Below, in pieces: positions 31,309-59,475 of a stretch of 64,000 nt of DNA. Numbering within the stretch: position 1 is the stretch's first letter; the number at the start of each line of letters is the position of its first letter. The notes under the pieces were generated by a model. It was not told the DNA's origin and made no database searches. It worked only from the letters and a program-made list of their open reading frames with translations. Made by a program: the position numbers and the translations under genes. Source of the DNA: Chrysophaeum taylorii (lineage: Eukaryota > Sar > Pelagophyceae > Pelagomonadales > Pelagomonadaceae); assembly GCA_029834535.1 (NCBI GenBank), contig JAQMWT010000384.1, positions 52,467 through 116,466 of the forward strand. The letters are read 5' to 3'.

Positions 31309-33333
31309 TTATGTGACCAAGGCAGATTGAGTATGCTCTCGCGTGGAAAGACGTGCAGGGTCTAGCGTGTCGAGAGAAAGAACTTTCCCAATAGCAATCG
31401 ACTTCCCCTCATCGCGCAAGGTGAACCTTCCGAGCTGTTCTACATCCTCGAAGATCTCGAGGCATATGGACTGAGGCACTGAAAGACGGGCGAGGACCAC
31501 AGCTCCTTGTTTGGCGAAGTGGAGTCGGCGTTGAGGCACATTGCAGCTACCTCTTTTCATAAGGAGTGGTTGCTTGGTGGGCTTAAGGTTCACCTGTTGC
31601 AGGAGCTGCGTGACCGTGCACTCAGTATCGAGAGTATGAGCATGGAGCATACAGTCGTAGCCAGCTGTGAAGACAGGCCGGTGCTCGAGGAGCTCAACAA
31701 GAGCAATCTGGGCCGTAAAGGTGGTGACAGCTCGGCAGACACGAGCAGGCGGGGGGGTGCAAAGGACATAACCTTTGTTCAGGTCTTCGATGCCTATGCC
31801 TGCAAGCTTAACACATACGTTCTCCCCTGGCTTCGCTGAATACACCGGCTGAGTTTCATTGAGGAAGATGGCCTCCACTTTCATCTTGAGGTTGGTAGGC
31901 ATGACAATAACCTCGTCACCCTTGGTGAGACGACCAGCTTCGACCTTACCCATTGCAATTGTACCACGATCGTGGTATCGATCTAGGACTGGGACGCGAA
32001 GCGGCGACTCTGGCGATCGGCCCGTGATGACGAGCGCATCAAGGCAATCTAGAAGCGTCCGGTCCTCAGTGTTGTGGCCAGAAGCAGCACAGAGTGTCTC
32101 CCACCAGTCGCAGACTCCTGGGTCGACCTTTTCCTTAACGTTGGCTCCTGTTAGGCCTGAGATTGCAAGGAACTTTACCTCTTTCTTGATGGTGTAACCG
32201 CATGATTTAAGGAACGGCTTAAGCTTGCTCACGCACTCCTCGTAACGGTTCTTGGACCAACGGACAGTTGGGTCATCCATCTTATTCACAACAACCACCA
32301 AGTATCTGACACCGAGTGTCTTGGCGAGCATGGCATGCTCACGTGTCTGGCCGCCACGCTCGAATCCAGTCTCGAACTCGCCGCGTCGCGCCGAAATGAC
32401 GAGGATTCCGACATCGGCTTGAGCAGCACCCGAAATCATGTGAGGGACGTAGTTCTTGTGACCAGGTGCATCAAGTATAGTGTAACGCTTCGCGGCAGTT
32501 GCGAACGGGGCACGACCAACTTCCACAGTCTTTCCCTTGGCGCGCTCCTCCTCGTTCGTGTCCATGATGAACGCGAGAAACCAAGACTCGCGGTTCCGCT
32601 GCTTCGCTTCGCGTTCGTACTTCTCGATTGTCCGTTTATCCACATGGTCTGTCAGATAAAGAATGTTTCCCGACAGCGTCGACTTCCCAGCATCAACGTG
32701 CCCAATAAAAACAATGTTCAGGTGCTCACGCGGGTCCTCCTCTTGCTCCTCTCTGACACTTCCCCCCACGGCTTCGGTTTCATCCTCGACCTGCAAGGGC
32801 TGTGGCACTTGAAAGTGCTCGATGGAGTCATCAGCCACAACCACACATGGAGAGCTAGCAGCTTGCTTGTCACCTCTGAGCTTCTCAATCACATCCGTTT
32901 CATCCTTGTTGGTCTTCTCGAAATCCGCCGTGGTATCCCACTCGTCAACATCAAGCTGCGGCTTTTCATTCATCACAGCCTTGACCTCGGGAAACTGCAT
33001 GAGCTCATCCGGGTCCTGGAGCAGCTCGATCGCCCTCACTCTATTACCTATGAGTTGCAATCAAGTGGCACTGCAAATCGTACCTTTAGTGATTTTGAGC
33101 GTGGCTTTCCAGAGTGGGTCGTTTTCGTCGATTTCCTTGTCTTCTTCCCCTGTGCATCCCCGTACCAGTAAGCTTTCCTCCCAAGATTCGACGTTGTCGG
33201 AAAGCTGCTCTTGCTTGGCTGTCTGGGGTTGCTCGTTCGAAGACGGGAGTGCGGGTGGCACCGCGAGTGGCATCGAGAACGAAGGCCGAAACTCGCCTGC
33301 TGTCGGGTTCAAGTTGAAAGTTGGTGCGTTCAT
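31309..33333 (-). CDS. SUP35: Eukaryotic peptide chain release factor GTPase subunit eRF3
   Basis: The translation GTPase that works with eRF1 to end protein synthesis at stop codons. I propose two exons, 33333-33084 and 33047-31309, joined across a 36-nt GT-AG intron (33083-33048), giving 662 codons in one phase. Residues 6-17, FNLNPTAGEFRP, are a PAM2 motif that binds the MLLE domain of poly(A)-binding protein, as in animal and fungal eRF3. The GTPase domain begins with HLNIVFIGHVDAGKST (G1), DAPGHKNYVPHM (G3), VVNKMDDPTVRWS (G4); beta-barrel domains 2 and 3 follow, and the end GRFTLRDEGKSIAIGKVL is typical of eRF3. HBS1 and eEF1A fit less well because of PAM2, GHKNYVPHM and CGYTIKKE. Frame looks intact. 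Without the intron, translation could only start at an ATG inside exon 2's open frame (33060). Confidence 0.96.
33048..33083 (-). other. Proposed 36-nt intron of eRF3
   Basis: On the minus strand the segment starts GTACG and ends CATAG. Removing it joins codons K|G-N-R-V-R-A without a shift and removes the TGA at 33061-33063. An upstream CTTGATTGCAAC could be the branch site. An alternative AG eight bases further on would produce an immediate stop. Confidence 0.7.
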
Positions 33334-36405: not shown

Positions 36406-37352
36406 CAAGTGCAGGCCAGTAAGTTCGCCAGTAAGTTCACCTAGTCCCAATCTCTAACCCCAGTAAGTTCGCCTGGTCCCAGTAAGTTCACCTGGTCAGT
36501 AAGTTCACCTAGTCCAAATCTCTAACCCCAGTAAGTTCGGCGTACTCGTGCTCACACCACTCCTTCGAGCTCGTCGCTGTCCCCTCCGCCAATCTAAGCC
36601 GCTTCGATCCGCACACGCCGCTAACCTTTCAGTTTACTCTAAAACCCTCAGTAAGCTCACCTGGTCCCAGTAGGTTCACCTGGTCACTATATTCACCTAG
36701 TCCCAATCTCAAGCCCCAGTAAGTCCACGTGGTCCCAGTAAGCTCACCTACAGTGCGCGTGTAGGCGCCGGGAGGGGGCTTATCGGTATTGCGCAGCACG
36801 TGTGGGGTAGGGCGGAGTCGTCGACTCAGAAGAGTATATTCTCGGGGTTGCCGATCGACAGAGAGCCACGTAGAGCCGTGACAGAAGACGGGCTTGTGGG
36901 CAAGAGGACGCGGACCTCGCGGGGCGTCTGGTCCTGGCTCTTGTTGGTCGTTTGGCATAGGCGGGCCTTAAGGGATGCAGGTTGGAGGAGCCTCGGTGAC
37001 AACGACACGATCGATCATGTATCTGGTACCGTTGCAGTGGCCGTGCGACGGGTCAAGGTTGCGAAGACTTTAAGCTCGCGATCAAAGTCAGCATGCCGTT
37101 GGTTGTCAGGGAGTTCAAAACTCGACTCTTGAGAGCGAGGCGTCGTCTTCCGACCCAACCTAGTCGGCCGAAAAGAACTCCGACGCCTCGTCTCCGGGAA
37201 AAAAAGGCCGCGGTCATGCGCGCGTTGTCAGCATCGACAACATCGTTTCGACGGGGCGTGAGAATGGCGCGCCGAAAGAGCCGCCGCGGGTCGTGGAAAT
37301 AGTCTGCGAGGTCGCCGTAGACGGCTTGGAGGATCACTGTCTGGCTCGCGTT
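36406..37352 (-). mobile_element. Helitron copy H6 (defective)
   Basis: Tail of GTGAACTTACTGG-type units (36406-36755) and helicase remnant (36760-37352) on the minus strand, ending CTTG at 36406. Unlike the other copies, the helicase text is not preceded by the CGCCTACCTGATCCTTACCC leader; it passes straight into a different open frame (next entry) after GCGAGCCAGACAGTG. An 11-bp block around AGCTCTACGTGG in the QLYVALCR region is missing (here TAGAGCCGTGACAG), so this copy is further decayed. Confidence 0.75.
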
Positions 37353-38048
37353 TGTCGGAGCCTTGGACTCCTCGGCCGGTGGCGGGCCGAGCTCGAGGCG
37401 GTCGCACCGCGTGTCAAAACGTTGGGCCTTCAACGTGAGCTTGCTGCGGCCTTTGAAGTCGATCCGGGAGAGGTACGTGTACAGTTCTATGGTGGTGAGC
37501 TTGCGAAGCGAGTCGTAGGTGTGTTGCTTCAGCTCTTCCAGCGCGCGCGCGATCTCGTCCTTCTTTTGCTGATCCTCGCGTACCTTGGTGGCGTCGTCCT
37601 TGGGCCACTCTGCACTGGCGAGGCGCTGCTCGACATTCTTGATGAAGCCCGGGACGCGCGCGAGCCCGAAAGCAGCAACCTTGTCGACGTGCATGTGCTC
37701 GCCGACCTCGCCTCTCTCAAAGACGGCGATGAATTCGGTGATTTTTTTCACGTTGAAGGCAATACAGGCGTCGAGCGTCGGTTGGAATCTTTGTATTCGA
37801 GCGCGCTCCTGATGTTGGAGGATCTCGGGCCTGCTGTGTTTGCGGTTGATGCCGAGGATCGATTGTACGAGAGTTCGGTGACGCCAGCAACCCCGCGTCG
37901 CTCGAGAGTCTCTTTCGAAGGCTATCGGACCAGGCGCTTCGGCCGGTGGGCGTTTGAAGGACTGCAGCAACAACTGGGTCGTCGACGCTGAGACGAAACT
38001 TCGGCGGCATCGTCGGCACTGAATGCACAAACAGCTACCAAAGTACAA
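37353..38048 (-). pseudogene. ORF fragment fused to Helitron H6
   Basis: The open frame 38048-37053 (331 codons) reads through the junction: about 230 non-Helitron residues, then SQTVILQAVYGDLADYF of the helicase. The non-Helitron part includes FNVKKITEFIAVFERGEV, VDKVAAFGLARVPGFIKN, a charged helix around DDATKVREDQQKKDEIAR and LTTIELYTYLSRIDFKGR. I do not recognise the family. Codon-like structure before about 37720 is less certain, since an alternative frame from 38028 (MHSVPTMPPKFRLSV) looks more like a natural start and would need a shift near 37730. It is either a gene fragment captured by the Helitron or a gene hit by it. Confidence 0.5.
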
Positions 38049-38424
38049 GTCCCTATAGAGCGCGACGCCGTCCAGGCCCTCGGTGGTATGTGCCGAGGAC
38101 TTAGTTTGCGTGAAGCTCTAAACAGGCCTCGGGGGGCGACGCTGCGCGCCAAAACGTGCCGAATGAGGGTTTCGTCGCTCACAATAAACAGCCGTGTCAA
38201 CCGATTTCCACCTCGCCGCGTCGCGTTTCTTGCTCGGGGATACCCAGGGCGAGTATGAACAAGGTGCTGGCACGATGGGGCCGACGGGACCTGTGAGGGA
38301 TGCTCATCGCCGAGCGCTTATAGGGTTGGCCGACGGCCGAAGATTTTGAGTTTTTTGCAAGTCGAAGGGCGCATGACGTCACGAGGCCCTGGAGAAAGAG
38401 GTTTTTTCAGGAGCACGGGATGTA
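38049..38424. other. Sequence between H6-linked ORF and H7
   Basis: Short unconvincing frames only. CTTATAGGGTTGG near 38318 could be a TATA-like element for minus-strand transcription, but this is weak. Nothing else is seen. Confidence 0.3.
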
Positions 38425-39415
38425 CAAGTGCAGGCCAGTAAGTTCACCTAGTCCCAATCTCTAACCCCAGTAAGTTCACCTGGTCGCGGTAAGTTCACCT
38501 GTAACCTGGTCAGTAAGTTCACCTAGTCCCAATCTCTAACCCCATTAAGTTCGGCGTAAACCCACTCGTGCTCACACCCACTCACCCCACTCTCCTTTGG
38601 GCTCGTCGCTCTCACCCCCGCCAATCTGAGCTGCTTTGATCCGCACACGCCGCTACCCTTTGAGTTTACTCTAAAAACCCCCAGTAAGTTCACCTGGTCC
38701 CAGTTATTCCACCTGGTCACTAAGTTCACCTAGTCCCAATCTCGAACCCCACTAAGTTCACTTGGTCCCAGTAAGTTCACCTGGACCCAGCAAGCTCATG
38801 TACAGTGCACGTGTAGACGCCGGGAGGGGGCTTGTCGGTATTGCGCAGCACGTGTGGGGTAGGGTGGAGTCGTCGTCTCAGAAGAGGATATCCTCGGGGT
38901 TGCCGACTCGATAGAGAGCCACGTAGAGCTCGGCGTGGCAGAAGACGGGCTAGGGCAAGAGGACGCCGGCCTTGCGGGGCGTCTGCCCCTTGCTCTTGTT
39001 GATCGTTTGGCGTCGGTGGGGCTTAAGGGATACTGGTTGGAGGAGCCTCGGTGACACGACACGATCGATGATGTATCGGGTGCCGTTGCAGTGGCCGTGC
39101 GACGGGTCGAGGTTGCGAAGACATTAAGCTCGCGATCAAAGTCAGCATGCCGTTGGTGGTCAGGGAGTTGGAAACTCGACTGTAAAGAGCGAGGCGTCGT
39201 CTTCCGACCCAACCTAGTCGGCCGAAAAGAACTCCGACGCCTCGTCCCCGGGAAAGGCCGCGGTCATACGCGCGTTGTCAGCATCGACAACATCGTTTCG
39301 ACGGGGCGTGAGAATGGCGCGCTGAAAGAGCCGCCGCGGGTCGTGGAAATAGTCTGCGAGGTCGCCGTAGACGGCTTGGAGGATCAATGTTTTGGCTCGC
39401 GCGCCTAACTGAGCC
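38425..39415 (-). mobile_element. Helitron copy H7 (defective)
   Basis: Tail 38425-38805, helicase remnant 38806-39392, minus strand. This copy keeps FPGDEASEFFSAD near 39214-39260 in a single phase because it lacks the extra A bases (AAAAAA) that interrupt most other copies, and so shows the ancestral text best. GQT reads KGQT here and the HVQLYVAL segment reads HAELYVAL. Confidence 0.75.
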
Positions 39416-39712
39416 TTACCCGGATTCGTGGGACACTCTCCTTGCCCACATCCTTCATGCTCCCCACACACACCCCCCTCTTAGCAGTCGACATTTAAAG
39501 ACACTCTCATTGCCTGCCCCACGACTCGGCGATGACCCCGACTAGGTCCCGCATACCTATCTACGCCCGTCAGGCACATCCCTCCTACCCCACAAAACCA
39601 CACACATCCTTCATGCACCACACATACCCCCCCCTCTTGGCAGTCGACCTTTACAGACAGACGCCGTGCCCCAACTGCCGCCGTGCTATACGCATGGTCC
39701 GCCCTCATCTAC
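39416..39712. repeat. Fragments of the 380-bp unit and CTCTTAGCAG cassette
   Basis: 39440-39510 and 39590-39660 are cassette copies; 39512-39590 matches the GACTCGGCGATGACCCCGAC part of the unit. 39661-39712 is a short stretch interrupted by RE4; its other half probably continues at 48878. Confidence 0.65.
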
Positions 39713-40023
39713 TGTGGCGGTAACCCTTACACCGTCATCCTTGACCCTAGGTCTATCGAGTTCTCTACCCCACTTCCCGTTACTGCACTCTACTTCAACC
39801 CCTGACGCACGTATTTGTAACGCCACCAGGCGTTTACTCCTTTCAAAATCGACTAATTTCAACCATAAATCATTTCACGAGTCTTCGGATTGAAGCTCGT
39901 GGGCAGTTTGAAGGTTGATCGACAGGAAGGAAGCGCTCCTCAACCCCCTCGGCACCCTCGAGACGTCGAGGGCACAGTCGAAGCAGGGTAAGAAGTCAGC
40001 GCGCATAATCATCTCCTGCCGCA
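39713..40023 (+). repeat. 5' LTR of RE4 (311 bp)
   Basis: About 95 percent similar by eye to the 3' LTR. It is followed by GGTGGTGGAGGACACGAG, the expected primer site position. 40024-40515 is leader sequence with no gene. Confidence 0.92.
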
Positions 40024-40515
40024 GGTGGTGGAGGACACGAGATCTTGCTACATCGGCGAGATCTCCGAACCTGCAACCGCAAGTCGAGCGTTGGGAACAA
40101 CACAAGCACCGCCGGTATTTGCCGCGGGGATTGATCACCCCCGAAGCTCTTCAAGGCGCTCGAGAGAAGACTAGCACACGTAACGTGCTCCGTACGATCG
40201 TCGACGAGTTCGTACGCCCGCGTGAAGACACGCACAACAACAACAGAAGGGTACCCAGCCGAGACAACATCTCTCGGTATCACCACCAGTTTGGGAACTG
40301 AGTGACAAAGAAGCTTCCCGACGGGGTCCTGAGCGGAACGTCGAACGCGGCATACGTGTGAAAAACGTATATTTGCGCGAAATCCGGAGACGAGCATCGA
40401 CTCGCCCGACAAGCCCGAGGACAACCAAATAGCCGACCACCGGAAAGAGTGAGCGGAGTCCGAGAAGACGGGCCAAGCCAGAACAGAGGCACTGAAAGAG
40501 ACAGCGTCAGCAGCA

Positions 40516-43314
40516 ATGCCGAAGCGACGCATCATACGAGATGAAGACGTCCCCCCCGACGCCGGGAGAGAAGGGGCGGAAGAAAAAGAGACCCCGCCGA
40601 CGCAGCCACCCGCGCCGGCGCCGGCCGCCGCACACGAGCCAGGCCGAGAAACCGAAAGACCGGCAGAAGCCGAAGAGAGAAAAGACGAAGAGTCGACGGG
40701 CGAGCAGCCAAGCGCCCCGACCACGACTCGAACCGAAACCGCCGATGAGCGCGCCGCCGAAAGCTCCCGAGCAGTTCGCGAGCTGCAGGAGATGGTATCG
40801 TTGCTCCAAGACCAGCTGCAGCAGCGCAACCGGCAAGATGAAGAAGTGCGAAGCCTGCTGCAAGAGCGGATCCGAATACAAGATGAGGAGAGTCGAAAGC
40901 AAGCGCAAGAGCGCGAGGAAGAGCGCGATCGGTTTGCCCGAGAGATACAGAAGCAGGCGCAAGAGCGCGACGAAGAGCGCAGCTTGATCGCCCAAGAAAT
41001 CGCGGCGCAGATCGAACAGGCGGCGACAGCTCAACTCGAAACCGCAACCCGTGAGGAGAGGGAAGCCCTTCAGAACGAGCTCCGACGCGCTCGCGAGGAC
41101 GCGGAGCACGCTCGCGAAGCGGCAGCGACCGAAATCCAAGATCTTCGGGAGGAAATGCGCTCGCTCAAGACGCGTCGAGAGCAGCGAGCGCAACCACCGC
41201 GACCCGAATCGCCTCGAGACTCGAACCACGACGAATCCGACTCCGAGCCGCCGAGCAGCGAACCGCCGGTCCGACGCGCGGAGCAAGCGAATCGTCCGCG
41301 AGCCCACGAGGAAGAGAAGGAACCCACGGAAGCCGACAAGATCGTCGCCGCACTGGTGAGAGCCGCCACGGGCCAAGGGCCCTCCGCCGCCCTGGCTTCC
41401 CGAAGATACGAGGACGCGGCTGCCCCGAGGCACCGACGTCTCAAGCTGGAGATGATCAAGCTGGACATCGAGGGCAAAGACCAGCGGCAGTTCGATCACG
41501 AGGCCGCCCTCATCGTCGGAGAGTTGTCGAAGGACCACTATTCTATTAGCTCGCTGTCGTTTGGCCTCGCGGACGACGTGCGCCAGGCCGTGCTACCGAC
41601 GTTGGAGGAAGGGCGGATGGCGGCCGAGGCACTGTGTACCTCGTTCGGCCACCCCGAGTCGTTCTATCTGCAATTCCACGCCGACAGCCAAACGCCGTAC
41701 AAGGAACAGATCCGACAGCTTCGCGACATGAACCTCTCCCACGTCCAGCGGATCCTCCAGCAGCTCCGCCAAGCCTGCCGACCCGCGCCTCGACCGGAGG
41801 AAGCCTTCCACAAGGTCCGGAACATCACGCAGGCCACCACGCCGAAGAAGGAGGGCGAATCTTGGGTCCTGACCTACCTCAAGTCGCTGCAGAAGGAGGC
41901 TACGGCCTATACAGCGTTGACGGGAACGTCGATGGATAGCATCGAGATGATTCACCAAATGATCGCCGGTCTGGCATCGACAAAGCTGCAACAAAAGATT
42001 CATATGGCGCGATGCGATCAGCCTAGTCAGTACAACACCTTCGCCGAGGTACAAAGTCTGATCCTCCGGCACGAGATCCAGTTCAACGCGTGGCAGAAGG
42101 CGCACCCCAGTAAGACCACCGACCCGCCGCCACGCGACCCGCGCGACCGCAAGAAACCCGGCGCATACGCGACGCAACCGGAAGAGCCAGAGGTGGACGA
42201 TGATCCGAGGCCCAGTATGCGAAACAAGGACGCATGGATGCAGAAGATGTGCGACTGCGGAAACTACAAGATCGACCATACGCGAAACGCGGATGGTTCC
42301 CTCCGATGCCCGCGCCCGAACGCGCACAAGCAAGCGATGAAAGCGCGGCGACGGCAGGGACAAGAACCCATCCCTTACGGAGCCTGGAAGAGAGAACAGA
42401 AAGCAGCACGACCCAACGGCGACCAACGACCGCCCGCGAATGCGAACGCCACCGCCTCGCCGGGTGCTGGCATTGTGCAGGTCAACCAGGTCGAAGCGAT
42501 CGTCGAGCGCATGCTCGCAGTGCGAAACTCCTCGAGCTCGAGTACGCAACCCTCGATGGATTACGCGGGGTCTTTCTTTGGGCCTCAATCGAGGGACGGA
42601 ACCGCCGGATGCTCCCTCACCGACGCCAAGCCCCTCGGGTCGGCCAGCAGCACCGGCGGAGAGTTTTTTGGAGCACTGCGGCCGTTATCCGTGCACCCGG
42701 TAACACCACCGAGCGAACCGCCGCCAAAGCCGGGCGTGATGACCGCCCCGGCCGACTCGACGTTCGCCTCCCCGACTGCTCTCGACGTGGTCCCTGAGGA
42801 CGAGCTAGACAAAACGCAAGCAGAGACCGCAATCGCACAGGCAAAGCTCGCCTTGCTAGGAGCCCCGCTCCGGAACGAAGAGAACGCCGGGCTCCCCGAG
42901 ATCGACGTAGACCCCGAGCCGGTGGTCGACCCTCGATCACTCACCGCCCAGGCGCCTGATGACGGTCGGGCTGGTCTAGAGGAGAACGCGCTATCGTCAC
43001 TGGCTAAGCCAGGACGCCGAAACACTGAGGACATCCAGCGGGGACCGCACGAGTCGGACGCAACACCCTCGGACGTCAATGACGACGCCGAAGACTCGAA
43101 TTCACGCGATCAGGAGGAAGATGTGGCCAGTCGCATCAGCGGCGCAACCGCAGAAGTCCCGCACGACTCGGACGCCGACGGCCCCGACCTCATCAAGAAC
43201 ACGTCCGACGGTGATGACGACGCCGACTCGGGAACGGAAGCGACCAATGAGCACCCGTCTGACTCCGACAGCGATGGTGACAGCGACGACGATTCCGACC
43301 CGACGCTAACCTAA
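40516..43314 (+). CDS. RE4 Gag
   Basis: A 932-codon uninterrupted frame from ATG 40516 (MPKRRIIRDEDVPPDAG). Residues 1-75 are charged and disordered; 75-230 form a long Glu/Arg/Gln coiled coil (LQEMVSLLQDQLQQRNRQD onward). Residues about 310-535 are the capsid-like helical domain (LKLEMIKLDIEGKDQRQFD, ADDVRQAVLPTLEEGRM, DQPSQYNTFAEVQSLIL). A Cys/His cluster CDCGNYKIDH...CPRPNAH near residue 575 may bind zinc, in the position of a zinc knuckle. The last 150 residues are Asp/Ser-rich. Its intact length suggests recent activity. The next coding segment is in the -1 phase. Confidence 0.85.
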   Translation: MPKRRIIRDEDVPPDAGREGAEEKETPPTQPPAPAPAAAHEPGRETERPAEAEERKDEESTGEQPSAPTTTRTETADERAAESSRAVRELQEMVSLLQDQLQQRNRQDEEVRSLLQERIRIQDEESRKQAQEREEERDRFAREIQKQAQERDEERSLIAQEIAAQIEQAATAQLETATREEREALQNELRRAREDAEHAREAAATEIQDLREEMRSLKTRREQRAQPPRPESPRDSNHDESDSEPPSSEPPVRRAEQANRPRAHEEEKEPTEADKIVAALVRAATGQGPSAALASRRYEDAAAPRHRRLKLEMIKLDIEGKDQRQFDHEAALIVGELSKDHYSISSLSFGLADDVRQAVLPTLEEGRMAAEALCTSFGHPESFYLQFHADSQTPYKEQIRQLRDMNLSHVQRILQQLRQACRPAPRPEEAFHKVRNITQATTPKKEGESWVLTYLKSLQKEATAYTALTGTSMDSIEMIHQMIAGLASTKLQQKIHMARCDQPSQYNTFAEVQSLILRHEIQFNAWQKAHPSKTTDPPPRDPRDRKKPGAYATQPEEPEVDDDPRPSMRNKDAWMQKMCDCGNYKIDHTRNADGSLRCPRPNAHKQAMKARRRQGQEPIPYGAWKREQKAARPNGDQRPPANANATASPGAGIVQVNQVEAIVERMLAVRNSSSSSTQPSMDYAGSFFGPQSRDGTAGCSLTDAKPLGSASSTGGEFFGALRPLSVHPVTPPSEPPPKPGVMTAPADSTFASPTALDVVPEDELDKTQAETAIAQAKLALLGAPLRNEENAGLPEIDVDPEPVVDPRSLTAQAPDDGRAGLEENALSSLAKPGRRNTEDIQRGPHESDATPSDVNDDAEDSNSRDQEEDVASRISGATAEVPHDSDADGPDLIKNTSDGDDDADSGTEATNEHPSDSDSDGDSDDDSDPTLT

Positions 43315-44162
43315 CGGGATCACCGGAGGCAAATCCGCACGCCGTCAATCACGAACTCACCGCCCTCATCGACGATGACACCGATTCGGACGGCGGCAGT
43401 TCGGACGAACGGGAAAGTCAACCCGGAGAATTGTTCCCTGCCCTATTCGGTCATCCGCGCGGACCCGCAACCGCCACAGCAATAACAGATGCCCTTCTCC
43501 AAGCACTCGAGGACCCGCACCGACAAAACCCGACGGATGCGGACGGCGACGCGTCTGACAGAAACGACTATGACGACGACGGCAGCACGCCCGAGAACGA
43601 TATCAACCCCGATTCAACGTCGAGGGCGACGCCGCACTCTCCCCAAGGGGGTACCCGCCGCGGACCCGGCCGCGATATCGGCAGCGGAAACAGCGAGTCG
43701 CCTCCAGTCGAGGGACCCGCCCAGGAACCGAACACGCCGGAACCGGAAGGATCGGAACAAACAGCCGAAACCGACAAGGGACCCCCGCGCAAAGGATCGG
43801 AACAAACAGCCGAAACCGACAGGGGACCCCCGCGCGAAGCTCGGGGAGAGATAAGCCTCGAGGAAGTTCACGGATCGAAAGCGTCCCGCACGCGGCTAAG
43901 AAGCGCCAGATTAAGACCTCCGCGCCGAGGGTCGAGGAGGGGGACGAGAGCCAAACGGCTCTGGAACAAGAAGAGTCCCGAGCGAACCGACCCCCCGGCA
44001 CGAAACCGAAATAAGACCCCAGACGGTGGCAGAGTCCTCCCGCTTCAAAACGAAGAGAAGGCAATCGACAAGGAGCCCGAGCCACCCGAAGAACGAAAGG
44101 AGGCTCGGAAAGACGAGGAACGAAGATTCCCCGACCTTCCGGTTCGAGAGCGCGAAGAATGA
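43315..44162 (+). CDS. RE4 acidic/basic linker region
   Basis: In the -1 phase relative to gag the text continues without a stop from about 43300 (ANLTGSPEANPHAVNHEL) to 44162. It contains a Q-G-G-T-R peptide at 43638-43658, a direct repeat of GSEQTAETDKGPPR (about residues 104-131 of the frame starting 43431), and a final stretch rich in Arg, Lys, Glu. No domain. It may be a Gag-Pol linker reached by frameshifting; or gag and this frame were one before a one-base change. Confidence 0.55.
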
Positions 44163-44273
44163 GGCCGTCGGTTACAGCGAAGAATCCAAGAGCTACCCGC
44201 CGATCCGCGAGCGAGCCGACAGAGCCGGTGGTCGATAGCCCCCCGATTCTTCGCGGGACGCGCGCACGTATCG

Positions 44274-44648
44274 ATGCCAATGGCAGGGACGGAGGACGAA
44301 GCCATGCGCATGCACTCCTCTTTCGCCCCCATCGACACCGAAACGATCAGCAGAGACCTGCGCGTCCTTAACTGCTGGGAAGCCGGTAGCCTGACGTTCA
44401 TGCCCATCCACGTGTTCAATCAGCCGGGCGACTCATCGTATGCCACGGTGATCGGTGTGGACGGAATGGCCGACGTCACCTACATCTGTCGCGACCTCGC
44501 ACGCCTAATGCGAAGGCGAGGGATGTTGCTGGATAGCGGCAAGCTGCCTTTCGAGCGAACGCTCTTCGGATCGGGAAAGAACACGACCTCGATTTCAGAG
44601 TGGATCGCCCTGCGAGTATCCGTTTCGGACGAAATGGCCGTACCGTAG
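44274..44648 (+). CDS. RE4 protease-like domain
   Basis: The frame reads ...YATVIGVDGMADVTYICRDL (Asp codon near 44458), a retropepsin-like beta strand and turn where D-T-G-A is replaced by D-G-M-A. RE5 has the same D-G-M-A-D (63764-63784) in a related domain. The segment GSGKNTTSISEWIALRVSV could be the flap and following strand. The frame stops at 44648 but the phase of the next frame (44600-46279) continues the homologous strand (RTVVAIVADTNK), so one shift is present. An inactive protease or a different single-domain protein remains possible. Confidence 0.55.
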   Translation: MPMAGTEDEAMRMHSSFAPIDTETISRDLRVLNCWEAGSLTFMPIHVFNQPGDSSYATVIGVDGMADVTYICRDLARLMRRRGMLLDSGKLPFERTLFGSGKNTTSISEWIALRVSVSDEMAVP

Positions 44649-46440
44649 TCGCAATCGTGGCAGACACCAACAAACAATTTCGGCCGGGAGCCCGCGACAT
44701 TCGAGCCTTTGGCGCTGTCGTGGATAATCCCCGAGACCGAATCTCCCTCTCGCGAACCCAAACAGCATTCCAGATGATGAAGCTCCCGTACTCGGGGGAA
44801 ATCGTTCGATCACCCGTCATTATTTATCGGGCAGCGTACGAAAGACACCCTATCGTATCGCTGATTTGCGGTTTTCGAGGGCAAGCGATGACGCAGAGTC
44901 GGAGTCAAGGTGGCAAGAGAGCTCTGCCACCACTGCTCGCTGAAGAGGATCTCCTCTCGCCGCCTCCTCAGCGAGCTTCGGCCGCCGTAACCTTGGCCGA
45001 GGACCCGTCTATGCCGAGCAACGACCCGAAAACGTCCGCGCCCGAGATCCGAGCGTTCGCAACCGGCTCCCAGCGCATCGACCCTGGTCGAACCCACAAC
45101 ATCCCGGTCAAGCTGAGTCAAGCGCTGAAGCCCGGAGAAGCCTTCGTCGCCACCGCGCCAAGCGTGGATCACCTCGGCGTCGTCGCCGGGACCTGCTCGA
45201 CGTGTGACCGCTCCGACCCGACCGCGGCCGCAGTGGCCGTGTCGTCGATGGACGACACGCCGATGTCGATCATCCCAGGTCAAGAGCTCGCGCGGGGGGA
45301 ATTTATCAACTGCCAAGAAGAAGTTCGGGTGACAACCCCATTGCCAAGCGCCGACCTGGGAAACGCGCACGAGAGCGAGCCCGAGGGCACGGCCTCCTTC
45401 ACGGTCTCGGTCACCAGTTACCCAACTCCAGACCCCGGAGAACTAAACGGCCAAGCACTTCGAACGTCGTCATTCAAGCCGCGTCTGCAAGCCCCGAAGG
45501 CGCAGTCGCAAGAACCGCCGAAATCCCGGGCCGCCGAACAAGCGATCATCGACAGGCACCAGGCGCTCTCCTGGATCCCGGAGAACGCGACGGCCGGGAT
45601 TGGAGGTGGTACACAGGGCATGTACCGGAGCAACGAATGGTTCGGAGCCGCGTACAAGGTCATGCTCGTCATCGACGCGTCCGACACCGCCAAAGAAGTC
45701 CAGGAGAGAAACTTTCCAGGAGTACCTGTCGTCCAGCACACCCTCGGCGGTCGGTACGACCGAGTCTTATTTCTGGTCAAAGGTTACCTGCATGAAAGCC
45801 TATGGCCCACGGCACTTTTCGTTGGTACGTCCCCATGCGTAGACTCCGACTTGTGCAACCTTGCGGCCTGCGACGCCGGGAAAGGAGTCTCCGCGACCAA
45901 TTGGACCATCAAGCTCTTCCAGCTTTCCGGAGTCGGACGATGGATCATCGAGCAGGAACCTTCAATCCGCTCGAAAATCACGTTGCGGCAAGGTTTCATC
46001 ACCGTCGTCGACCTATGGACGACGACGCCGGACCTCATGAGTACCCGTCGGCGCATGATCATCACGAGCTGGCCTCTCCAGCTCACCCGACGTCCCAAAA
46101 CGTGCGGCACTATTCAAGACACCTTCGCCGCCAAACTCGGACTCGACCCTGCGCAGCCTCTCATCCAGCGCAACAACTTTGGATGCGCGCGAGAGGCCAC
46201 GGCACCGATATACACCATCACGCGGAACGGGGTGCGAACAGGACCCACGCCTTCGGACACCGAAGCGCTCAGACTATAGATGCTCGCGGAGGCTCTCACA
46301 ATGCCGAGCGATCTCGCATGGGGTAATCTCACAGTCACGGACCGAATGAAGCATCTAGCGGCCGTAATACCCCCGTCTTCCACGGCGCACATAGTCCTCG
46401 ACGCCCACAACGCGCTGCCGCCCACGCTCCGCAACATCGG
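44649..46440 (+). CDS. RE4 C5-cytosine DNA methyltransferase domain
   Basis: Frame 44600-46279 followed, after one TAG (46277-46279), by the same phase from 46280. After protease remnants, a Q-G-G-K-R peptide (44903-44920) and a linker, the methyltransferase starts about 45560. Motif I is ATAGIGGGTQGM (about 45590-45625), the F-x-G-x-G SAM loop; motif II is VIDASD; motif IV is FVGTSPCVDSD (catalytic Cys, about 45835); an E-Q-E-P in the place of motif VI (E-N-V) follows WII; motif VIII is LMSTRRRMIITSW (about 46035-46075). Past the stop, LTVTDRMKHLAAVIPP and DAHNALPP (about 46330-46430) match motifs IX and X. Organisation resembles DNMT3/DRM-type enzymes more than bacterial Dcm, by eye. It lies between protease and reverse transcriptase. 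Confidence 0.78.
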
Positions 46441-47295
46441 AATCGCGCGCCCGAGCGTAGTCGGACCCACCGACGAACCCTCCGAAACATACATCATCGA
46501 GCGCGCCCCCTCCAACCGCACCCGCGCCGGAGCCACCGCACCCGAGCCCCGGAGCGCCCTTGCGAACGTTTCGACTCGCGTACTTCACTGGGTGCCGAAC
46601 CGCGACCTCCAGGACAAAGCGAAATGGCAACCGCCGGACCTTCCTTTGACCCCTCCGAAGCCCGCTGCATCAGGGACGATGCACTCATCTTCCCAAGGGG
46701 GTACCCGCGCGAGCAAAAACGACGCAACCTCGAAAGGCGAACCAAGCGACGAAAAACCAACCAAGAAACCAACTGGCGACAAGACCAAAGAGCCCGTCCG
46801 GTTCAAGTATGAGGAACGGCTTGACGTACCAAGGAAAAACGCATCACGGGACGAAGACGGCGCGCCGCTACCGCAACAGCCCAACCATCTGAAAGAGAAC
46901 GAGGCCATAATCGACAAGAACCCCACGAAGGAAGAAGTGGACAAGGTAGTCGACGAGTTAGGCATCCCGAACAACTCACACTTGGACGAGAATGCCAAAC
47001 TCATGTTGGCGCACTGCATTCGACACTCTTGGGCCTCCTTCAATCCCGTTATGAGGACCGTGCACCCTCGACCGGTGTCCCTCCGATTCAAAGACGCGAA
47101 CCCAAAGCCCATCGAGACGTCGCCGTACCGCCTCGCTCCAGCCAAGATCGAAGATCTTCGCAAGCAGATTTCCGGATGGCACCGAGACGGAGTCGTAAGA
47201 CCCGCCAACCCCCCTCGGGGGTTCCCGATCTTCATGCTTCCGAAGAAAGGGGCAGAGCTCGGGACATCTACCGCTCTCGGCGCGGCCGTCGACTT
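46441..47295 (+). pseudogene. RE4 reverse transcriptase, N-terminal part
   Basis: Continues the phase of 46280-47629. After a linker with S-S-Q-G-G-T-R (46688-46708) it reads HCIRHSWASFNPVMRTVHP, KPIETSPYRLAPAKIEDLRKQ, GVVRPANPPRGFPIFMLPKK, the start of a Gypsy reverse transcriptase (the P-Y-R-x-x-P and G-x-I-x-P-x-x-S-P segment). The text ends at about 47250 and the catalytic Y-x-D-D part is absent. The phase after 47250 is shadow sequence. Truncated by the internal deletion. Confidence 0.8.
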
Positions 47296-47299
47296 AACG

Positions 47300-48521
47300 T
47301 CCGCTCAACGATCAGTTGGTTTCAGACAGAGGGCCGAACCCGCCGCAAGAGGACGCCATAGCGTTCCGGGCCGGCCGAAAGCACAGGACGCCGAGACCAC
47401 ACCACGCCCAAGCGAACCCCGCGGAGCAAGTCAATCGACTCCTCAAGGCGTTCCTCCGGGCCCGCCGCCTCGAAAGTCGCAGCATCACCGACTGGCCGGC
47501 CCTCGTCCGGTGCGTGTCGTTTTGCTACAACCGAAAGTTCATACCCGGCATGCAAATCTCGCCATTCATGTTGCGCCTGAACCGCCAGCCGATGTTGCCC
47601 ACGGACTACCCCTTGTTGGTTCGGCCTGACCCCGTTTTGCCGCGACCACGATCCGACGCGATACTGAAAGTCAAGCAGAGCTTCCAGTACCACTCGAAAG
47701 TAATCGCCGAAGCGCAGGATCATGCCAAGACGACGCAGAAACCCACTTACGACGCCGAGCACGTGGATGTCGAATACAATGTCAATTCGCACGTATTACT
47801 GTACATTCCGCAGTCCCACAACAAGTTGCGACCGGAGTGGCACGGCCCTTTCCTCATCACCGAGCATCTGTCGCCTGTCTCGTACAAGATCCGATCGGTT
47901 TACGGAGCCGCCGAAGAGCGAATCGTGCCGGTCCAACAGATCACCCCAGTGTCGAGGCCTCCCGCACTCGATGCCACGATCCGTCGTCCGAGCCCCGGAT
48001 GCCGCGACGAGTACGAGCGCGGCGAGTTCGTCATCTTCCGAATCCCGTCGGCCCGAAACCCCGAGTGGCGCAAGAAGCTCTACGTCGCCGAGGTATTCGA
48101 GGATTATGATGATGTTCAAGACCGAGACGCCCTCCATTTTTACTCCGACCTGGGCCCGCGCGACGACCCATCGTATTTCGACCCGACCTCACCGCTTGAA
48201 GGTCGCACGCTGAGCCCGGAAATCAAGTCGGCACTCGGTCGCAGCTTCACCCGCACCGAGAAACTAACACCTCAGTGCACCCCTTGCGTGACCGACTTCG
48301 CTCCGGACGAGATCGACGTCCTGGTTCCCCGGTTCAAGCTCCAGGGGAAATCAGTTCCTCCTCCGATCGTCCAGCGAGTCAAAGATATTCTCGCGCATCG
48401 CGCGCGCCAAGAACAAGAACAACTCCAAGCTCAACAGCGCGCTCATCAGACGCGCACTCAAGTCCCGTCCACCGACGGTCCGCGCCGAAACTCTCGTCGG
48501 TCGCACCACCGCCGTCGCTGA
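47300..48521 (+). pseudogene. RE4 integrase C-terminus and tail
   Basis: The frame 47316-48521 opens with VSDRGPN, the strand around the second catalytic Asp of Gypsy integrase, then QANPAEQVNRLLKAFLRARR (the N-x-x-E-R-x-N region; Glu present), FCYNRKFIPGMQISPFMLRL, and the C-terminal HVLLYIPQSHNKLRPEWHGPFLITE (a typical L-x-P-x-W-x-G-P-F motif). The first catalytic Asp and zinc domain are deleted. The last 150 residues include VPVQQITPVSRPP and an Arg/Gln-rich end with no recognisable chromodomain. Confidence 0.85.
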
Positions 48522-48550
48522 GGACAGCTCCTATCGAAGCAGGGGAGTCC

Positions 48551-48877
48551 TGTGGCGGTAACCCTTACACCACCATCCTTACCCCTAGGTCTATCGAGCT
48601 CTCTACACCACGTCCCGTTACTGGACTCTACTTCAACCCCTGACGTACGTATTTGTAACGCCACCCGGCGTTTACTCCTTTCAGAATCGACTAATTTCAA
48701 CCATGAATCATTTCACGAGTCTTCGGATTGAAGCTCGTGGGCAGTTTGAAGGTTGATCGACAAGAAGGAAGCGCTCCTCAAAGGAAGCGCTCCTCAACCC
48801 GCTCGGCACCCTCGAGACGTCGAGGGCACAGTCGAAGCAGGGTAAGAAGTCGGCGCGCATAATCCTTTCCTGCCGCA
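48551..48877 (+). repeat. 3' LTR of RE4 (327 bp)
   Basis: 16 bp longer than the 5' LTR because AAGGAAGCGCTCCTCA is duplicated in tandem near 48763-48795. Confidence 0.92.
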
Positions 48878-49025
48878 TCTATGCTGGGTGTCTGTGCACT
48901 CTCTCCCCCAGGTCCGCGATGCCGCGCCCCATCGCACTTTCCCACTTGCTGCGGCCCTTGCCGCCACCACCGCCCGATATCGAATTCGAGCGCGTATGCG
49001 CGACGCTGCCCTTGCCGCACGAGCC
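48878..49025. other. Short GC-rich flank between RE4 and the inverted LTR
   Basis: Probably the continuation of the target sequence interrupted by RE4 (39661-39712). The sequence reads as Arg/Ala-rich in all phases and I see no gene. Confidence 0.4.
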
Positions 49026-49205
49026 TGTAGTGGTTTTCTCAGAAACCCGCCCCTCTTGGCCGGACCAGGGGCCTCAACAAGCCCTTTCTCCCAACCCGAA
49101 CCGCGGGTGAAACCACCACAGATCTCAGCGTAAACGCTCACGCCATCTTCAAATCGGACAATCAAATGAGGGTAATAACAAGAAGACAGCAAGAAAACTG
49201 TGGCA
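49026..49205 (-). repeat. Inverted LTR of the RE5 family
   Basis: The reverse complement of this segment matches 49345-49526 nearly throughout (TTTTCTTGCTGTCTTCTTG, TTTCACCCGCGGTTCGGG, CTGAGAAACCACTACA). Its 3' end at 49026 is joined directly to other sequence and not to a primer binding site, so it is a solo or 3' LTR. No flanking duplication (GAGCC against GTAAC), so a rearrangement is likely. Confidence 0.85.
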
Positions 49206-49344
49206 GTAACGCCCATCCCCCCACTTGCCTGCCTGCCACCTGACTTACCCTGATTGTTGCCCTGGTACTGACCTTGCAATTATGGGGGGGTGTCATCTTG
49301 ACATCCTCACCTGCGCTTCCACCGAACCCAATGTACCAGGCATT

Positions 49345-49526
49345 TGTATTGTTTTCTTGCTGTCTTCTTGCTATTACCCTCATTTGATTGTCCGATTTCG
49401 TGATGGCGTGAGGTGTTACGCTGAGATCGGGCGTGTGGTGGTTTCACCCGCGGTTCGGGTTGGGAGAAAGGGTTGTTGAGGCCTCTGGCCTGGCCAAGAG
49501 GGGCGGGTATCTGAGAAACCACTACA
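49345..49526 (+). repeat. 5' LTR of RE5 (about 182 bp)
   Basis: Starts about TGTATTG and ends CCACTACA, directly before a primer binding site. The start is estimated from alignment with the inverted copy. 49206-49344 between the two LTRs holds no gene. Confidence 0.8.
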
Positions 49527-49527
49527 G

Positions 49528-49540
49528 TGGTATCAGAAAC
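49528..49540 (+). promoter_or_regulatory. Primer binding site of RE5
   Basis: TGGTATCAGAAAC matches the common initiator-methionine tRNA primer site TGGTATCAGAGC at the first ten bases and sits one base after the LTR end. Confidence 0.8.
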
Positions 49541-49591
49541 GGGAATCGATAGTCCAACTCCCGGACTATCAATCTCCTGTTTTTCGGAGCG

Positions 49592-51175
49592 TGTAGCCCT
49601 CGAGTTATGGGAGTCCGAAGTCCAGCCGGCCGAGTGGGACGTAGGCCTCCTCGGGATTCAAACCAAGAAGGGGGGCCTCTCCCTGCCGGGCAACTACCGC
49701 GGGGTCATGATGCTCGAGGTCGCGCAGAAGATCGTTTCGAACATCGTCCGTGCGCGACTCAACGTCATCTGCGAGGCCCTCGATCACGAGTCCCAATGTG
49801 GATTCCGACCCGAGCGCGGTACGTCCGACGCCACCTTCTCGCTCAAGCTGGCGCTGAATAAACGGCGCGAGCACGGTCAGGACGCGTGGGTACTGTTCAT
49901 CGATTTCGTTAAGGCGTTCGACCGCGTCCCGCGAGAGCTTCTCTGGGAGGTGCTCCTGAAGTTCGGCGTCCCGCCGAAGATCGTCGAAGTCACCAAGGGC
50001 CTCCACTGAATCCAGGTCCACTTATCGGGCAGCGGTGTCGTCGCCTCGGTTGACTCGATCATCGGCGTCGAGCAGGGCGACGTCCTCGGCCCCGTCCTGT
50101 TCGTGCTGTTCATGGCGGCACTGACGACGTCGTTTCGACGACGCCATGGCCGCGCCCCGTGTGTCTACCGTACGCGGGAGGACTTTCAGATGACGAACCG
50201 GGGTTGGTCCGCTCGCGGCGACGAGTTTCCCTTCGATGAATCGGCGTACGCCGACGACGTCGCCTTTATCTTCTGGGACCGCCACATCGCCGCCAGCGAG
50301 ACACCGCGCCTCATCGAACACTGCGACGCCTGGGGCATGGAGGTGCATTGCGGCAACCGACACACGAAGGCGGCGTCCAAAACGGAGATGCTGTTCGTCG
50401 CTCGCCCGGCACACCTGTACGGCGACCCAACGTCGTTCGACGACACGGACCTCTCGGACATCGAGCTCGGGTTGAACCACTCGGCGGGCGTCCCGGCGTA
50501 GGCGAAAGGCGCGAACTTCTTCTGCTCGAAGAGCGCGGCCGCTTCATACCGGTCGTCGACCAGTTTAAGTACCTCGGCTCGGTCCACTCGCGCGACTGCC
50601 GCGACGACTCGGACGTCGACGCGCGGATCAAGAAGCCGTCTCAGGCCTTCGGTGCCTTGCGGGACTGCATCTTCGCCTCGAAGTCCGTCACTGCTCGCGC
50701 CAAGCGCCTCGTCTACGTCTCGCTCGTCCTGGCCATCCTCCTTCACGGTGCGGGATCGTGGTACCTCACCGAGGTCCTGTTCCGCCGGCTGCGGTGCTTC
50801 CACGCGCAGTGCGCCCGCGTCATGTGTCGTGTGACCCGGAAGCACACCTGGCTCCACCACATCTCAACGGAGATCCTGCTGCGGCGCCTCGGCCTCGAGT
50901 CCATCGACGTCTACGTCACGCGCCGCCAGCTCCGCTGGGCCGGTCACGTCGCCCGCGTGCCCTTCTCCCGACTCCCTCGCAAGATGCTCTCGTCTTGTGT
51001 CCGCTCCGAGCGCCCACCGGGGGCTCCGCAGATGACGTACGGGAGGACGCTCGCCAAGGCACTCCGGAAATGCGACATCCCCTTCAACTCGTGGCACGAC
51101 CTCGCACAAGACCGCGCGCGGTGGCGGTCCGCCATCAACGCCTTTTCATCCCTCGCCTCTACCCCAACTGTGTGA
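49592..51175 (+). pseudogene. Non-LTR reverse transcriptase remnant
   Basis: Broken by an in-frame TGA at 50007-50009 (between KGLH and IQVHLSGSG) and by a shift near 50490-50510. Both active-site blocks, DFVKAFD and YADDVAF, are kept. The R-R-Q-L-R-W-x-G-H-V-x-R segment is common to several non-LTR clades; I do not assign a clade. Confidence 0.9.
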
Positions 51176-57779: not shown

Positions 57780-59475
57780 TGGAGATGGCCGATAAGAATT
57801 CTGTAACCTGGTTGATGTCTCCGGGGCTGGGGATGCCATGGCGTATCGTGGCCCATTCGATGTGAAGGTTCACGTGGTGGTGCGATTCGTGGAATGCGAG
57901 GACAGCGCTGTATTTTGCCTGCAACATGTGGTGCGGGACGGCGTTGGCCAGTGCCTTGAACGCGAAGTACGGCGGGTGCTGTTTGAACAGGCGGAGCAGT
58001 TCCGGGTCCGAGTGGTGTCCAAATTTTGCGATTTCGTTGAGGGTCGCGTAACGAATGTGGTCTGGAGAGATCAGCAGCAAGGCATTGGAGTAGCTCGTGT
58101 TGGTGGGGTACGAGCCAGTGACCGAGTAGCACTTGGTGCTCTTCTGAAGCGTGTCTCCGATGTGGCCGACATAGTCCACGTAAGTGGGACGTGCTTTGGA
58201 CATAATGAGTCCCTTGGGGTCATCGAGAGCAATTCGCCATTGCTAGTCGATCGCGGCAGAGCCAGGATGCGAACGATTCGTATAGTGGACCCAAGTGGAC
58301 GGGCGAGAACAGCTGTGAGCGGCGGCCAAGGAGGTGGTGTAGGCGACGACCAGAAAGGTGGTCCCCTTGGGAACATCCAGGGAAAAGGAGTTTGTTGGGG
58401 AGAAGACTGCGGGTTGGTGGGAACAGTCCAAAATCTGAAGGGGCCTGGAATGTAGGGTGAGGGAGGCGCGCGAGAAGTATCCACATGCGACGGCAGTAGC
58501 GGCGGTGCCGGTGATGGCTCCATCCAAATGGTAAGCACATTGAGACTCTGAGGCATGAAAACAGCGGATGGTGTTCCAAGCGGCGAGATTGGGGTGTTGC
58601 ACAAATGGTTGTGCAGGAGCGTGAAAACCAGGAGGTGGGAGATGGACGCCATCGCGGCGTAGGGGGTGCCGTCGGCATCTAGACCGAGATCCGCGAAGGG
58701 CTTGGTGAGACGTGCGAGCATTTGGCAGATGCGGGCATTCTCGGAAATCGAGAGTTTCGAGGCGCTGGCGGGCTTGTAGGAGTAGGTGGCCTTGTGCTGG
58801 TAGTAGTCCAATGTGGAACGGGGCATTGTACCACGAAGGACGGGTTTGGCGATCCAGAGATCGTCAGGGATGGTGTGACTGGGGTCCAGGAGAGGAACCA
58901 TGCTCGGAGGCGAGGTTAACCAAGGAGAGGCGGTTTTCTCGAGGTTGTAGCCAGTGAGCGGGTGCCGGGCATACACGGCGAGATAGCGTGTCTAGCTGAT
59001 GACATCACCAAAAGCAGAGGCATTGTAGACGCCGGAATGGCGGAAGTAGCCTAAGCGCTGATAACCTTTGGCGAGTTGAGCATACTCGTGGTGAGTTCGG
59101 GGGTTGGGAGGGACGTTCTCGACAATGGTATAAGTCGGGAGCGTGCAACGAACGAAGCGGAGTTGTTCTTTGACAAAGAGGTCGGCGGTGACCGGAGTGT
59201 CATAACCGTCGTATTCTTTCATTACACTCAGATGTTGGCAGGGCAATGTAAAAACTGCGAGGTCGAATGTAGGGAGTCTTATTTTGCCGGTTTGGAGTGC
59301 GGCATTGAGTTTTCTGAGGTCCGCATAGTGCTTGGCATGCGGGAAGAGGTGTCGCGCATGGGTGCGCACGATATCGTTGATTTCACGGGCGACTACGACA
59401 GTTAGGCGTTTGTCGAATCGTTTGCGAAAAGTGGCGAAACCTTCCTGGTGAAGTCCACCGGTAATAATGGCTGTT
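57780..59475 (-). pseudogene. RE6 C5-cytosine DNA methyltransferase domain
   Basis: Spread over frames 58992-59475, 58071-58976 and 57780-58203. Motif I is weak: AIITGGLHQEGFATF (about 59425-59470), with AREINDIVRTHARHLFPHA as motif II and AKHYADLRKL as motif III. Motif IV is FTLPCQHLSV (catalytic Cys, about 59240). Motif VI is IVENVPPN (about 59105-59125), canonical. Motif VIII is SAFGDVIS*TRYLAVYAR, with one TAG inside it at about 58994. The variable region follows, about 300 residues. Motif IX is IRYATLNEIAKFGHH (58020-58060), motif X is ALANAVPHHML (57925-57960). One stop and one shift. It sits between protease and integrase. Strong motif set; the first loop is the weak point. Confidence 0.87.

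What the first reader, a model, noticed from the sequence alone, without database searches (positions are those of the whole stretch)
44900..46440. Gypsy-type element RE4 also carries a methyltransferase, of a different subtype
AGIGGGTQGM, VIDASD, GTSPCVDSD, STRRRMIIT and HNALPP lie in order in one frame with a single TAG. The style differs from RE3 and RE6 and by eye is nearer to DNMT3/DRM. The domain is placed between protease and reverse transcriptase, again just after the protease. Two superfamilies holding this domain in one 64-kb locus suggests convergent capture.
Basis: partly seen in the sequence, partly recalled or inferred. Interest (0 to 1): 0.88.

Follow-up and report, generated by a model that had tools for sequence, protein, structure and literature searches.

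The report
Jumping gene carrying a DNA methyltransferase
A family of retrotransposons in this eukaryotic genome carries a cytosine-methyltransferase-like domain that selection has kept, apparently even in a shortened form of the element that has lost its own copying machinery.

Summary
Window 45560-46440 encodes a cytosine-C5-methyltransferase-like domain in a Ty3/Gypsy element (LTRs 39713-40023, 48551-48877). The window copy is decayed: a TAG, six residues missing before motif I, a 2-kb pol deletion. The family is not: 30 matches in the own genome and at least 108 relatives at 46-49% identity, 92 of 108 without a stop. PF00145 matches 16 of 20 aligned members. A joint profile matches eight C5 enzymes at 96.6%, over motifs I-IV only; reversed and unrelated controls 0.5% or less. 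Catalytic Cys: 23 of 24 readable copies. DNMT3/DRM affinity is not supported. Copia element RE6 in the same window also carries a C5-type domain; one or two captures is undecided.

Unexpected: 14 of 28 copies examined share one in-frame deletion of RT palm, RNase H and integrase core. They are one lineage by RT remnant but have exchanged 5' halves with full-length elements. In a clade without full-length copies the methyltransferase looks constrained (omega 0.14) while the RT remnant drifts (0.79); counts are small. Methyltransferases in Gypsy elements are known (Klebsormidium, 2018): new variant of a known kind.

The parts
39713..40023 (+). 5' LTR of RE4
   Evidence: Pairs with 48551-48877: 312 aligned bases, 17 mismatches, one 16-base gap; starts TG, ends CA; flanks TCTAC (39708-39712) and TCTAT (48878-48882)
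40453..43314 (+). Gag-like open frame (position only; no Pfam match under cut-off)
   Evidence: ORF of 953 aa; no family
44448..44507 (+). Protease-like stretch VIGVDGMADVTYICRDLARL, assigned by eye
   Evidence: Position; conserved in sister element L073; no Pfam match
45086..45199 (+). Conserved post-protease stretch
   Evidence: Alignable with sister element L073; position
45560..46440 (+). C5-methyltransferase-like domain, interrupted by TAG at 46277-46279 and missing six residues before motif I
45824..45850 (+). Motif IV with catalytic Pro-Cys
   Evidence: Pro-Cys in 23 of 24 readable copies
46346..46381 (+). Likely motif X block (MKHLAAVIPPSS)
   Evidence: Conserved in both subfamilies; aligned with motif X of references
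46814..47399 (+). RT N-terminal remnant
   Evidence: 68% to L073 RT over 161 residues; junction position
47400..48521 (+). Integrase C-terminal part, joined to the RT remnant by an in-frame deletion of about 2.0 kb
   Evidence: Integrase_p58_C and SH3_Tf2-1 below their cut-offs; same junction in 14 of 28 copies; gap in full-length copies
48551..48877 (+). 3' LTR of RE4

Best explanation
RE4 is a decayed copy of a Ty3/Gypsy family whose polyprotein carries a C5-methyltransferase domain between the post-protease segment and the reverse transcriptase. Shown: homology, ordinary motif order, conserved catalytic Cys, Glu and Arg, purifying selection, and coexistence of full-length and shortened forms. 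Inferred: the domain is packaged with the element and methylates cytosines of its new cDNA before or at integration, so that a new copy arrives already marked; the host's DNMT5-like enzyme could then maintain the mark. The shortened form lacks RT palm, RNase H and integrase core, so it must borrow them from full-length relatives; that the methyltransferase seems to stay constrained there suggests that it serves the template or particle that encodes it, rather than surviving only as a passenger of pol.
For: PF00145 in 16 of 20 aligned members, best E 1.5e-6; phage DNA-methyltransferase family in 19 of 20, best 4.9e-8; joint profile against eight C5 references (two identical) 96.6%, E 7e-10, against 0.1% reversed, 0.5% N4/N6 methylase, 0.05% RT. 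Cys in 23 of 24, Glu of motif VI in 23 of 25, Arg of motif VIII in 25 and 24 of 25 readable copies. Omega in the domain 0.24 against 0.53 and 0.57 in its flanks, 11 of 28 copies; second subfamily p 9e-33. Shortened form: one lineage on the RT remnant, exchange in the 5' half; domain 10 synonymous to 4 non-synonymous fixed differences against 4 to 10 in the RT remnant. Host DNMT5-like gene, E 3e-129. Published precedent: retrotransposon DNMTs can methylate CG de novo (PMC5890265, abstract).
Against: No activity or methylome data. Asn of ENV and Gly-Asn of motif X are absent in both subfamilies. The profile match covers motifs I-IV only (80 columns; 156 when host enzymes are added). CpG is not depleted in the window (1.04) or RE4 (1.29), so there is no footprint of dense CpG methylation. 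The domain-versus-RT contrast in the shortened form is marginal (Fisher p 0.057); exchange with full-length elements could explain the constraint; the integrase tail is constrained too (0.15). Another RT comparison ran differently (domain 0.49, RT 0.88; 6 of 21 pairs).
Confidence: 0.45

Rival explanations
1. The domain methylates RNA, for instance the element RNA or the primer tRNA, in the way of DNMT2.
For: The nearest solved C5 enzymes are DNMT2 chains, though weakly (E 0.035-0.16); the DNMT2-like host protein is the better match of the two host enzymes (62% against 0.2%). The 2018 authors raise RNA methylation for LINE elements (PMC5890265 discussion).
Against: The resemblance is weak and lies in the cofactor half; sister sequences match the general PF00145 profile; phage DNA methyltransferases match as well.
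Confidence: 0.2
2. The domain is no longer an enzyme but a structural or nucleic-acid-binding part of the polyprotein, which explains its constraint.
For: Asn of ENV and Gly-Asn of motif X are missing; the window copy itself cannot be active as it stands.
Against: Catalytic Cys, Glu and Arg are kept in nearly all readable copies and Pro-Cys, the motif VI Glu and the motif VIII Arg pair are invariant among the 20 sequences of both subfamilies at 46-49% identity; a purely structural part would have no need of the Cys.
Confidence: 0.25
3. The constraint seen in the shortened form is borrowed: its 5' half is refreshed by recombination with full-length elements, and the methyltransferase does nothing for the shortened form itself.
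For: The methyltransferase tree mixes the forms (AU p 7e-5 against one clade, at least 4 changes). The integrase tail is constrained as well (0.15).
Against: The 10-copy clade used for the test holds 7 shortened, 3 undetermined and no full-length copies, and the domain is constrained on its inner branch (p 4e-4).
Confidence: 0.4
4. The motifs are chance resemblance and there is no methyltransferase.
For: RE4 members alone match no Pfam or NCBIfam family as a methyltransferase and no C5 enzyme of the PDB; three searches of a protein database found nothing; the single-sequence fold is unusable.
Against: PF00145 and phage-family matches in sister sequences, profile comparison with controls, conserved catalytic residues, five of six phage matches annotated as methyltransferases and one unannotated.
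Confidence: 0.02

Closest known systems
KnitGypsy-Dnmt3 of Klebsormidium nitens (de Mendoza et al. 2018, PMC5890265; abstract and sections 6, 9 and 11 read)
   Same: C5-methyltransferase inside the Pol frame of a Gypsy LTR element, purifying selection on the domain, key residues conserved
   Different: There the domain is Dnmt3-related; here no DNMT3 affinity was found. No shortened derivative is described in the sections read. Here a Copia element of the same genome carries such a domain too
SymbioDIRS-Dnmt3 and SymbioLINE-Dnmt of Symbiodinium (same paper)
   Same: Retrotransposon families with conserved DNMT domains in many copies
   Different: DIRS and LINE elements, not Gypsy; Dnmt3 or a dinoflagellate-specific lineage
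RE6-type Copia elements of the same genome
   Same: C5-type domain in an LTR element, constrained (omega 0.10-0.29 in 21 pairs of 7 copies)
   Different: Copia (RVT_2), with PCQ and ENV motifs; no detectable profile similarity to RE4
Non-autonomous LTR derivatives of plants and others (recalled as a kind: BARE2, LARD, TRIM)
   Same: Multiplied deletion form living beside full-length relatives
   Different: Keeps a long open frame with protease-like stretch and an added methyltransferase while losing the RT, RNase H and integrase core

Membership tests
C5 cytosine methyltransferase superfamily (PF00145) | Motif I glycines, motif IV Pro-Cys, motif VI Glu, motif VIII Arg-x-Arg in this order | tested here: met
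   G19 in 25 of 25, Pro-Cys 23 of 24, Glu 23 of 25, Arg 25 and 24 of 25 readable RE4-type copies; these positions also shared with the sister subfamily
C5 cytosine methyltransferase superfamily (PF00145) | Asn of ENV and Gly-Asn of motif X | tested here: not met
   EQE and AA in RE4, EQE/EQA and AS in the sister subfamily
C5 cytosine methyltransferase superfamily (PF00145) | Profile match | tested here: met
   PF00145 in 16 of 20 members, best E 1.5e-6; none of three RE4 members scanned one by one. Bits per member not shown; in the long frame L073 21.6 against a cut-off of 22
C5 cytosine methyltransferase superfamily (PF00145) | Methyl transfer to cytosine | not testable with these tools
   No assay or methylome
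DNMT3 | Closest relatives are DNMT3 | tested here: inconclusive
   No DNMT3 chain among PDB matches at E 10; no DNMT3 sequences could be placed in the tree
DRM | Rearranged motif order (recalled) | tested here: not met
   Ordinary order I, IV, VI, VIII, X
Ty3/Gypsy LTR retrotransposon | LTRs, and order RT, RNase H, integrase | tested here: met
   LTRs; order in relatives L055 and L073. The window copy has lost the middle of pol
Non-autonomous LTR derivative | One shared deletion, present in many copies | tested here: met
   Same junction in 14 of 28 copies; one clade on the RT remnant, 100/100
Non-autonomous LTR derivative | Mobilised in trans by full-length relatives | not tested
   Exchange of 5' halves is compatible with co-packaging; LTRs and target sites of other copies were not examined

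The most novel reading that the evidence does not exclude
A retrotransposon lineage without its own RT, RNase H and integrase core keeps a methyltransferase under selection because the enzyme marks or protects the nucleic acid of the element that encodes it, and host DNMT5 then perpetuates the mark: a mobile element that writes heritable methylation onto its own new copies, arisen separately in Gypsy and Copia elements of one genome.
Probability: 0.15. Interest if true: 0.8.

Novelty: new variant of a known kind. Interest (0 to 1): 0.6.

Why it matters
Why retrotransposons carry the enzyme class that hosts use to silence them is open; the 2018 paper says so in its discussion. This genome offers a natural test: the domain occurs in two LTR superfamilies and in full-length and shortened elements, which can separate what it does for its own template from what it does as part of pol. 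A host with a DNMT5-like enzyme also makes element-written, host-maintained methylation testable.

Tried and rejected
Structure: the window piece before the TAG (244 aa, single sequence) folded at pLDDT 32 and was not used. Protein database: no match for the RE4 profile at E 10, the joint profile at E 1 or the methyltransferase region of a sister frame at E 1; length and shared-word limits of that tool make this weak evidence of rarity. Viral contigs: no relative for either profile or the host DNMT2-like protein. A bacterial scan for references gave one relative.

Selection results that did not fit: the RT value (0.72) mixed full-length and shortened copies, whose sequences do not correspond there, and was dropped. 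A second comparison (6 of 21 pairs kept by dS over 0.1) gave RT 0.88 and domain 0.49; I did not check which copies drive it. One search separates the forms: RT N-terminus 0.20 in full-length (20 pairs) and 0.57 in shortened copies (58 pairs), domain 0.30 and 0.27; medians use pairs with pS over 0.08 only. One search used 11 of 28 copies, those without indels in the domain, so it leans to intact copies. One search classed 14 as shortened, 9 as full-length (L035 and L036 identical) and 5 as undetermined. Fixed-difference counts allow one deviating copy per group, skip other codons, and used groups chosen after seeing a tree or alignment.

One origin for RE4 and RE6 domains: neither shown nor rejected. 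RE3: not found by profile or in the window frames scanned with Pfam. The TAG codon: TAG in 4 of 25 readable copies (window, L029, L045, L048); shared ancestry or recurrence not separated.

Full report
What is there. Window 39713-48877 is an LTR retrotransposon: two LTRs with 17 mismatches in 312 aligned bases and one 16-base gap, flanked by TCTAC and TCTAT. Inside lie a gag-like frame (40453-43314), a protease-like stretch (44448-44507, by eye), a conserved post-protease stretch (45086-45199), the domain of the finding (45560-46440), an RT N-terminal remnant and an integrase C-terminal part.

Is it a methyltransferase? RE4-type members alone match no methyltransferase family of Pfam or NCBIfam and no C5 enzyme in the PDB; phage methyltransferase families match weakly, best E 0.02. 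A search of the own genome with one RE4-type domain lists 132 matches, from 131 scored of 911 candidates. By my count of that table 24 are RE4-type and 108 form a second subfamily at 46-49% identity, 92 of the 108 without a stop; since the best candidates are scored first, this leans to intact copies. I fetched 16 of the 108. They read like ordinary C5 enzymes around motif I, for instance VVMLFSGAGGSTLGLQRANE. PF00145 matches 16 of the 20 aligned sequences, best E 1.5e-6; three of the four RE4 members had no such match when scanned singly, so at least 15 of the 16 are sister sequences. A phage DNA-methyltransferase family matches 19 of 20, best E 4.9e-8. Of 6 phage records hit by a sister protein, at E 0.02 to 7, five are annotated as methyltransferases and one is unannotated. 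The PDB profile search gives DNMT2 at E 0.14-0.16 next to noise such as Cry1Ac at 0.21. The joint profile against eight C5 enzymes (seven viral, two of them identical, and one bacterial) gives 96.6%, E 7e-10, over 80 columns (motifs I-IV); RE4 alone gives 85.9%. The reversed profile gives 0.1%, an N4/N6 methylase 0.5%, an RT 0.05%. The test misses real relatives when only one sequence stands on the other side: the host DNMT5-like protein gets 0.2%.

Is it intact in the family? Over 27 RE4-type copies with an alignable domain, Pro-Cys is present in 23 of 24 readable, the motif VI Glu in 23 of 25, the two motif VIII Arg in 25 and 24 of 25, G19 of motif I in 25 of 25 and G21 in 22 of 25. The window copy is a poor representative: six residues before motif I are missing, and it has the TAG. 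Two features of ordinary C5 enzymes are absent in both subfamilies: Asn of ENV and Gly-Asn of motif X.

Selection. In 11 of 28 copies, those without indels in the domain, 55 pairs give a median omega of 0.24 in the domain, 0.53 upstream and 0.57 downstream. In the second subfamily fixed differences between two groups are 110.5 synonymous and 47.5 non-synonymous over 235 codons, p 9e-33. The RE6-type Copia domain is constrained as well (7 copies, 21 pairs, 0.10-0.29).

Element class. L055 carries RVT_1, RNase H, integrase zinc finger and rve in that order, and so does second-subfamily element L073: Ty3/Gypsy. Between the subfamilies RT is 81% identical over 377 residues, the protease segment 45%, the methyltransferase 46-49%. 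Either the 5' half evolves faster or it has been exchanged; not separated.

The shortened form. In the window the frame passes from the RT N-terminus into the integrase C-terminus. The same junction is in 14 of the 28 copies examined (of 30 matches); 9 are full-length there, two of them identical, and 5 undetermined. A 401-base probe across the junction finds 14 continuous matches among 40 scored of 316 candidates, while full-length copies match in two halves about 2.0 kb apart, for instance on C451, C503, C579 and C681. The deletion keeps the frame; shortened copy C405 has an open frame of 1885 aa through the domain. On the RT remnant the 14 shortened copies are one side of a branch, 100/100, against 8 full-length ones. 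On the methyltransferase a single clade is rejected (AU p 7e-5; 13 against 9), with at least 4 changes of form. So one deletion, spread, and exchange of 5' halves with full-length elements is the simplest reading. In a methyltransferase clade of 7 shortened, 3 undetermined and no full-length copies, the inner split has 10 synonymous and 4 non-synonymous fixed differences in the domain (omega 0.14, p 4e-4), against 4 and 10 in the RT remnant (0.79, p 0.44). The contrast is marginal by Fisher's test, p 0.057. Over all pairs the RT N-terminus is 0.20 in full-length and 0.57 in shortened copies, the domain 0.30 and 0.27. Against a simple story, the integrase tail of the shortened form is constrained too (0.15), and another RT comparison gave higher values.

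Mechanism. Most likely the domain travels in the particle and methylates the element's cDNA. This was proposed for the 2018 elements, whose DNMTs were shown able to methylate CG de novo (PMC5890265: abstract and sections 6, 9, 11 read). Here it is inference. The host has a DNMT5-like gene (E 3e-129 to PDB 7r76, listed as 'DNA repair protein Rad8' and recalled as Cryptococcus DNMT5) and a DNMT2-like gene (E 3.9e-39 to 1g55). Others may be missed behind introns. CpG is not depleted in the window (observed/expected 1.04) or RE4 (1.29), which gives no support for dense, lasting CpG methylation.

Subtype and origin. DRM is excluded by motif order (its order is recalled). DNMT3 affinity was not found, but no DNMT3 sequences could be put in a tree. 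In the tree RE4 and its sister subfamily stand apart from RE6, but with long branches, and one clade of all retrotransposon domains is not rejected, AU p 0.069. Separate capture is possible, not shown.

Known or new. C5-methyltransferases in Gypsy, DIRS and LINE elements were published in 2018. In five library searches (listings and abstract starts seen) and passages of three papers (PMC12477816, PMC9998398, PMC12730594) I saw no report of such a domain in Copia, nor of an RT-less derivative keeping it. That is a statement about those searches only.

Noticed in passing
window 58614-59477, minus strand (RE6): Copia element with a C5-methyltransferase-like domain (PF00145 E 5e-9, RVT_2 nearby); 18 of the 20 loci fetched for PF00145 in the own genome are of this type.
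   Followed up: partly
L009 and L010: Host cytosine methyltransferases: DNMT2-like (E 3.9e-39 to 1g55) and DNMT5-like (E 3e-129 to 7r76).
   Followed up: partly
window 46277-46279 and L029, L045, L048: The same codon near the end of the domain reads TAG in 4 of 25 readable copies, mostly GAG in the others.
   Followed up: partly
L035 and L036: Two contigs (C521, C25) hold the same RE4 copy and flanks of nearly equal contig length: likely uncollapsed haplotypes, so copy counts may be slightly inflated.
   Followed up: no
window 49515-50009, plus strand: Fragment of another reverse transcriptase (RVT_1, E 1.7e-17) just downstream of RE4, next to an 85-base inverted repeat at 49114-49435.
   Followed up: no
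window 31309-33060, minus strand: Host translation GTPase of the EF-1alpha type (GTP_EFTU, eEF1A_C), a likely marker to identify the organism.
   Followed up: no
window 36427-38783: Repeats around CAGTAAGTTCACCTAGTCCCAATCTC inside a segment duplicated with about 2.05 kb spacing.
   Followed up: no
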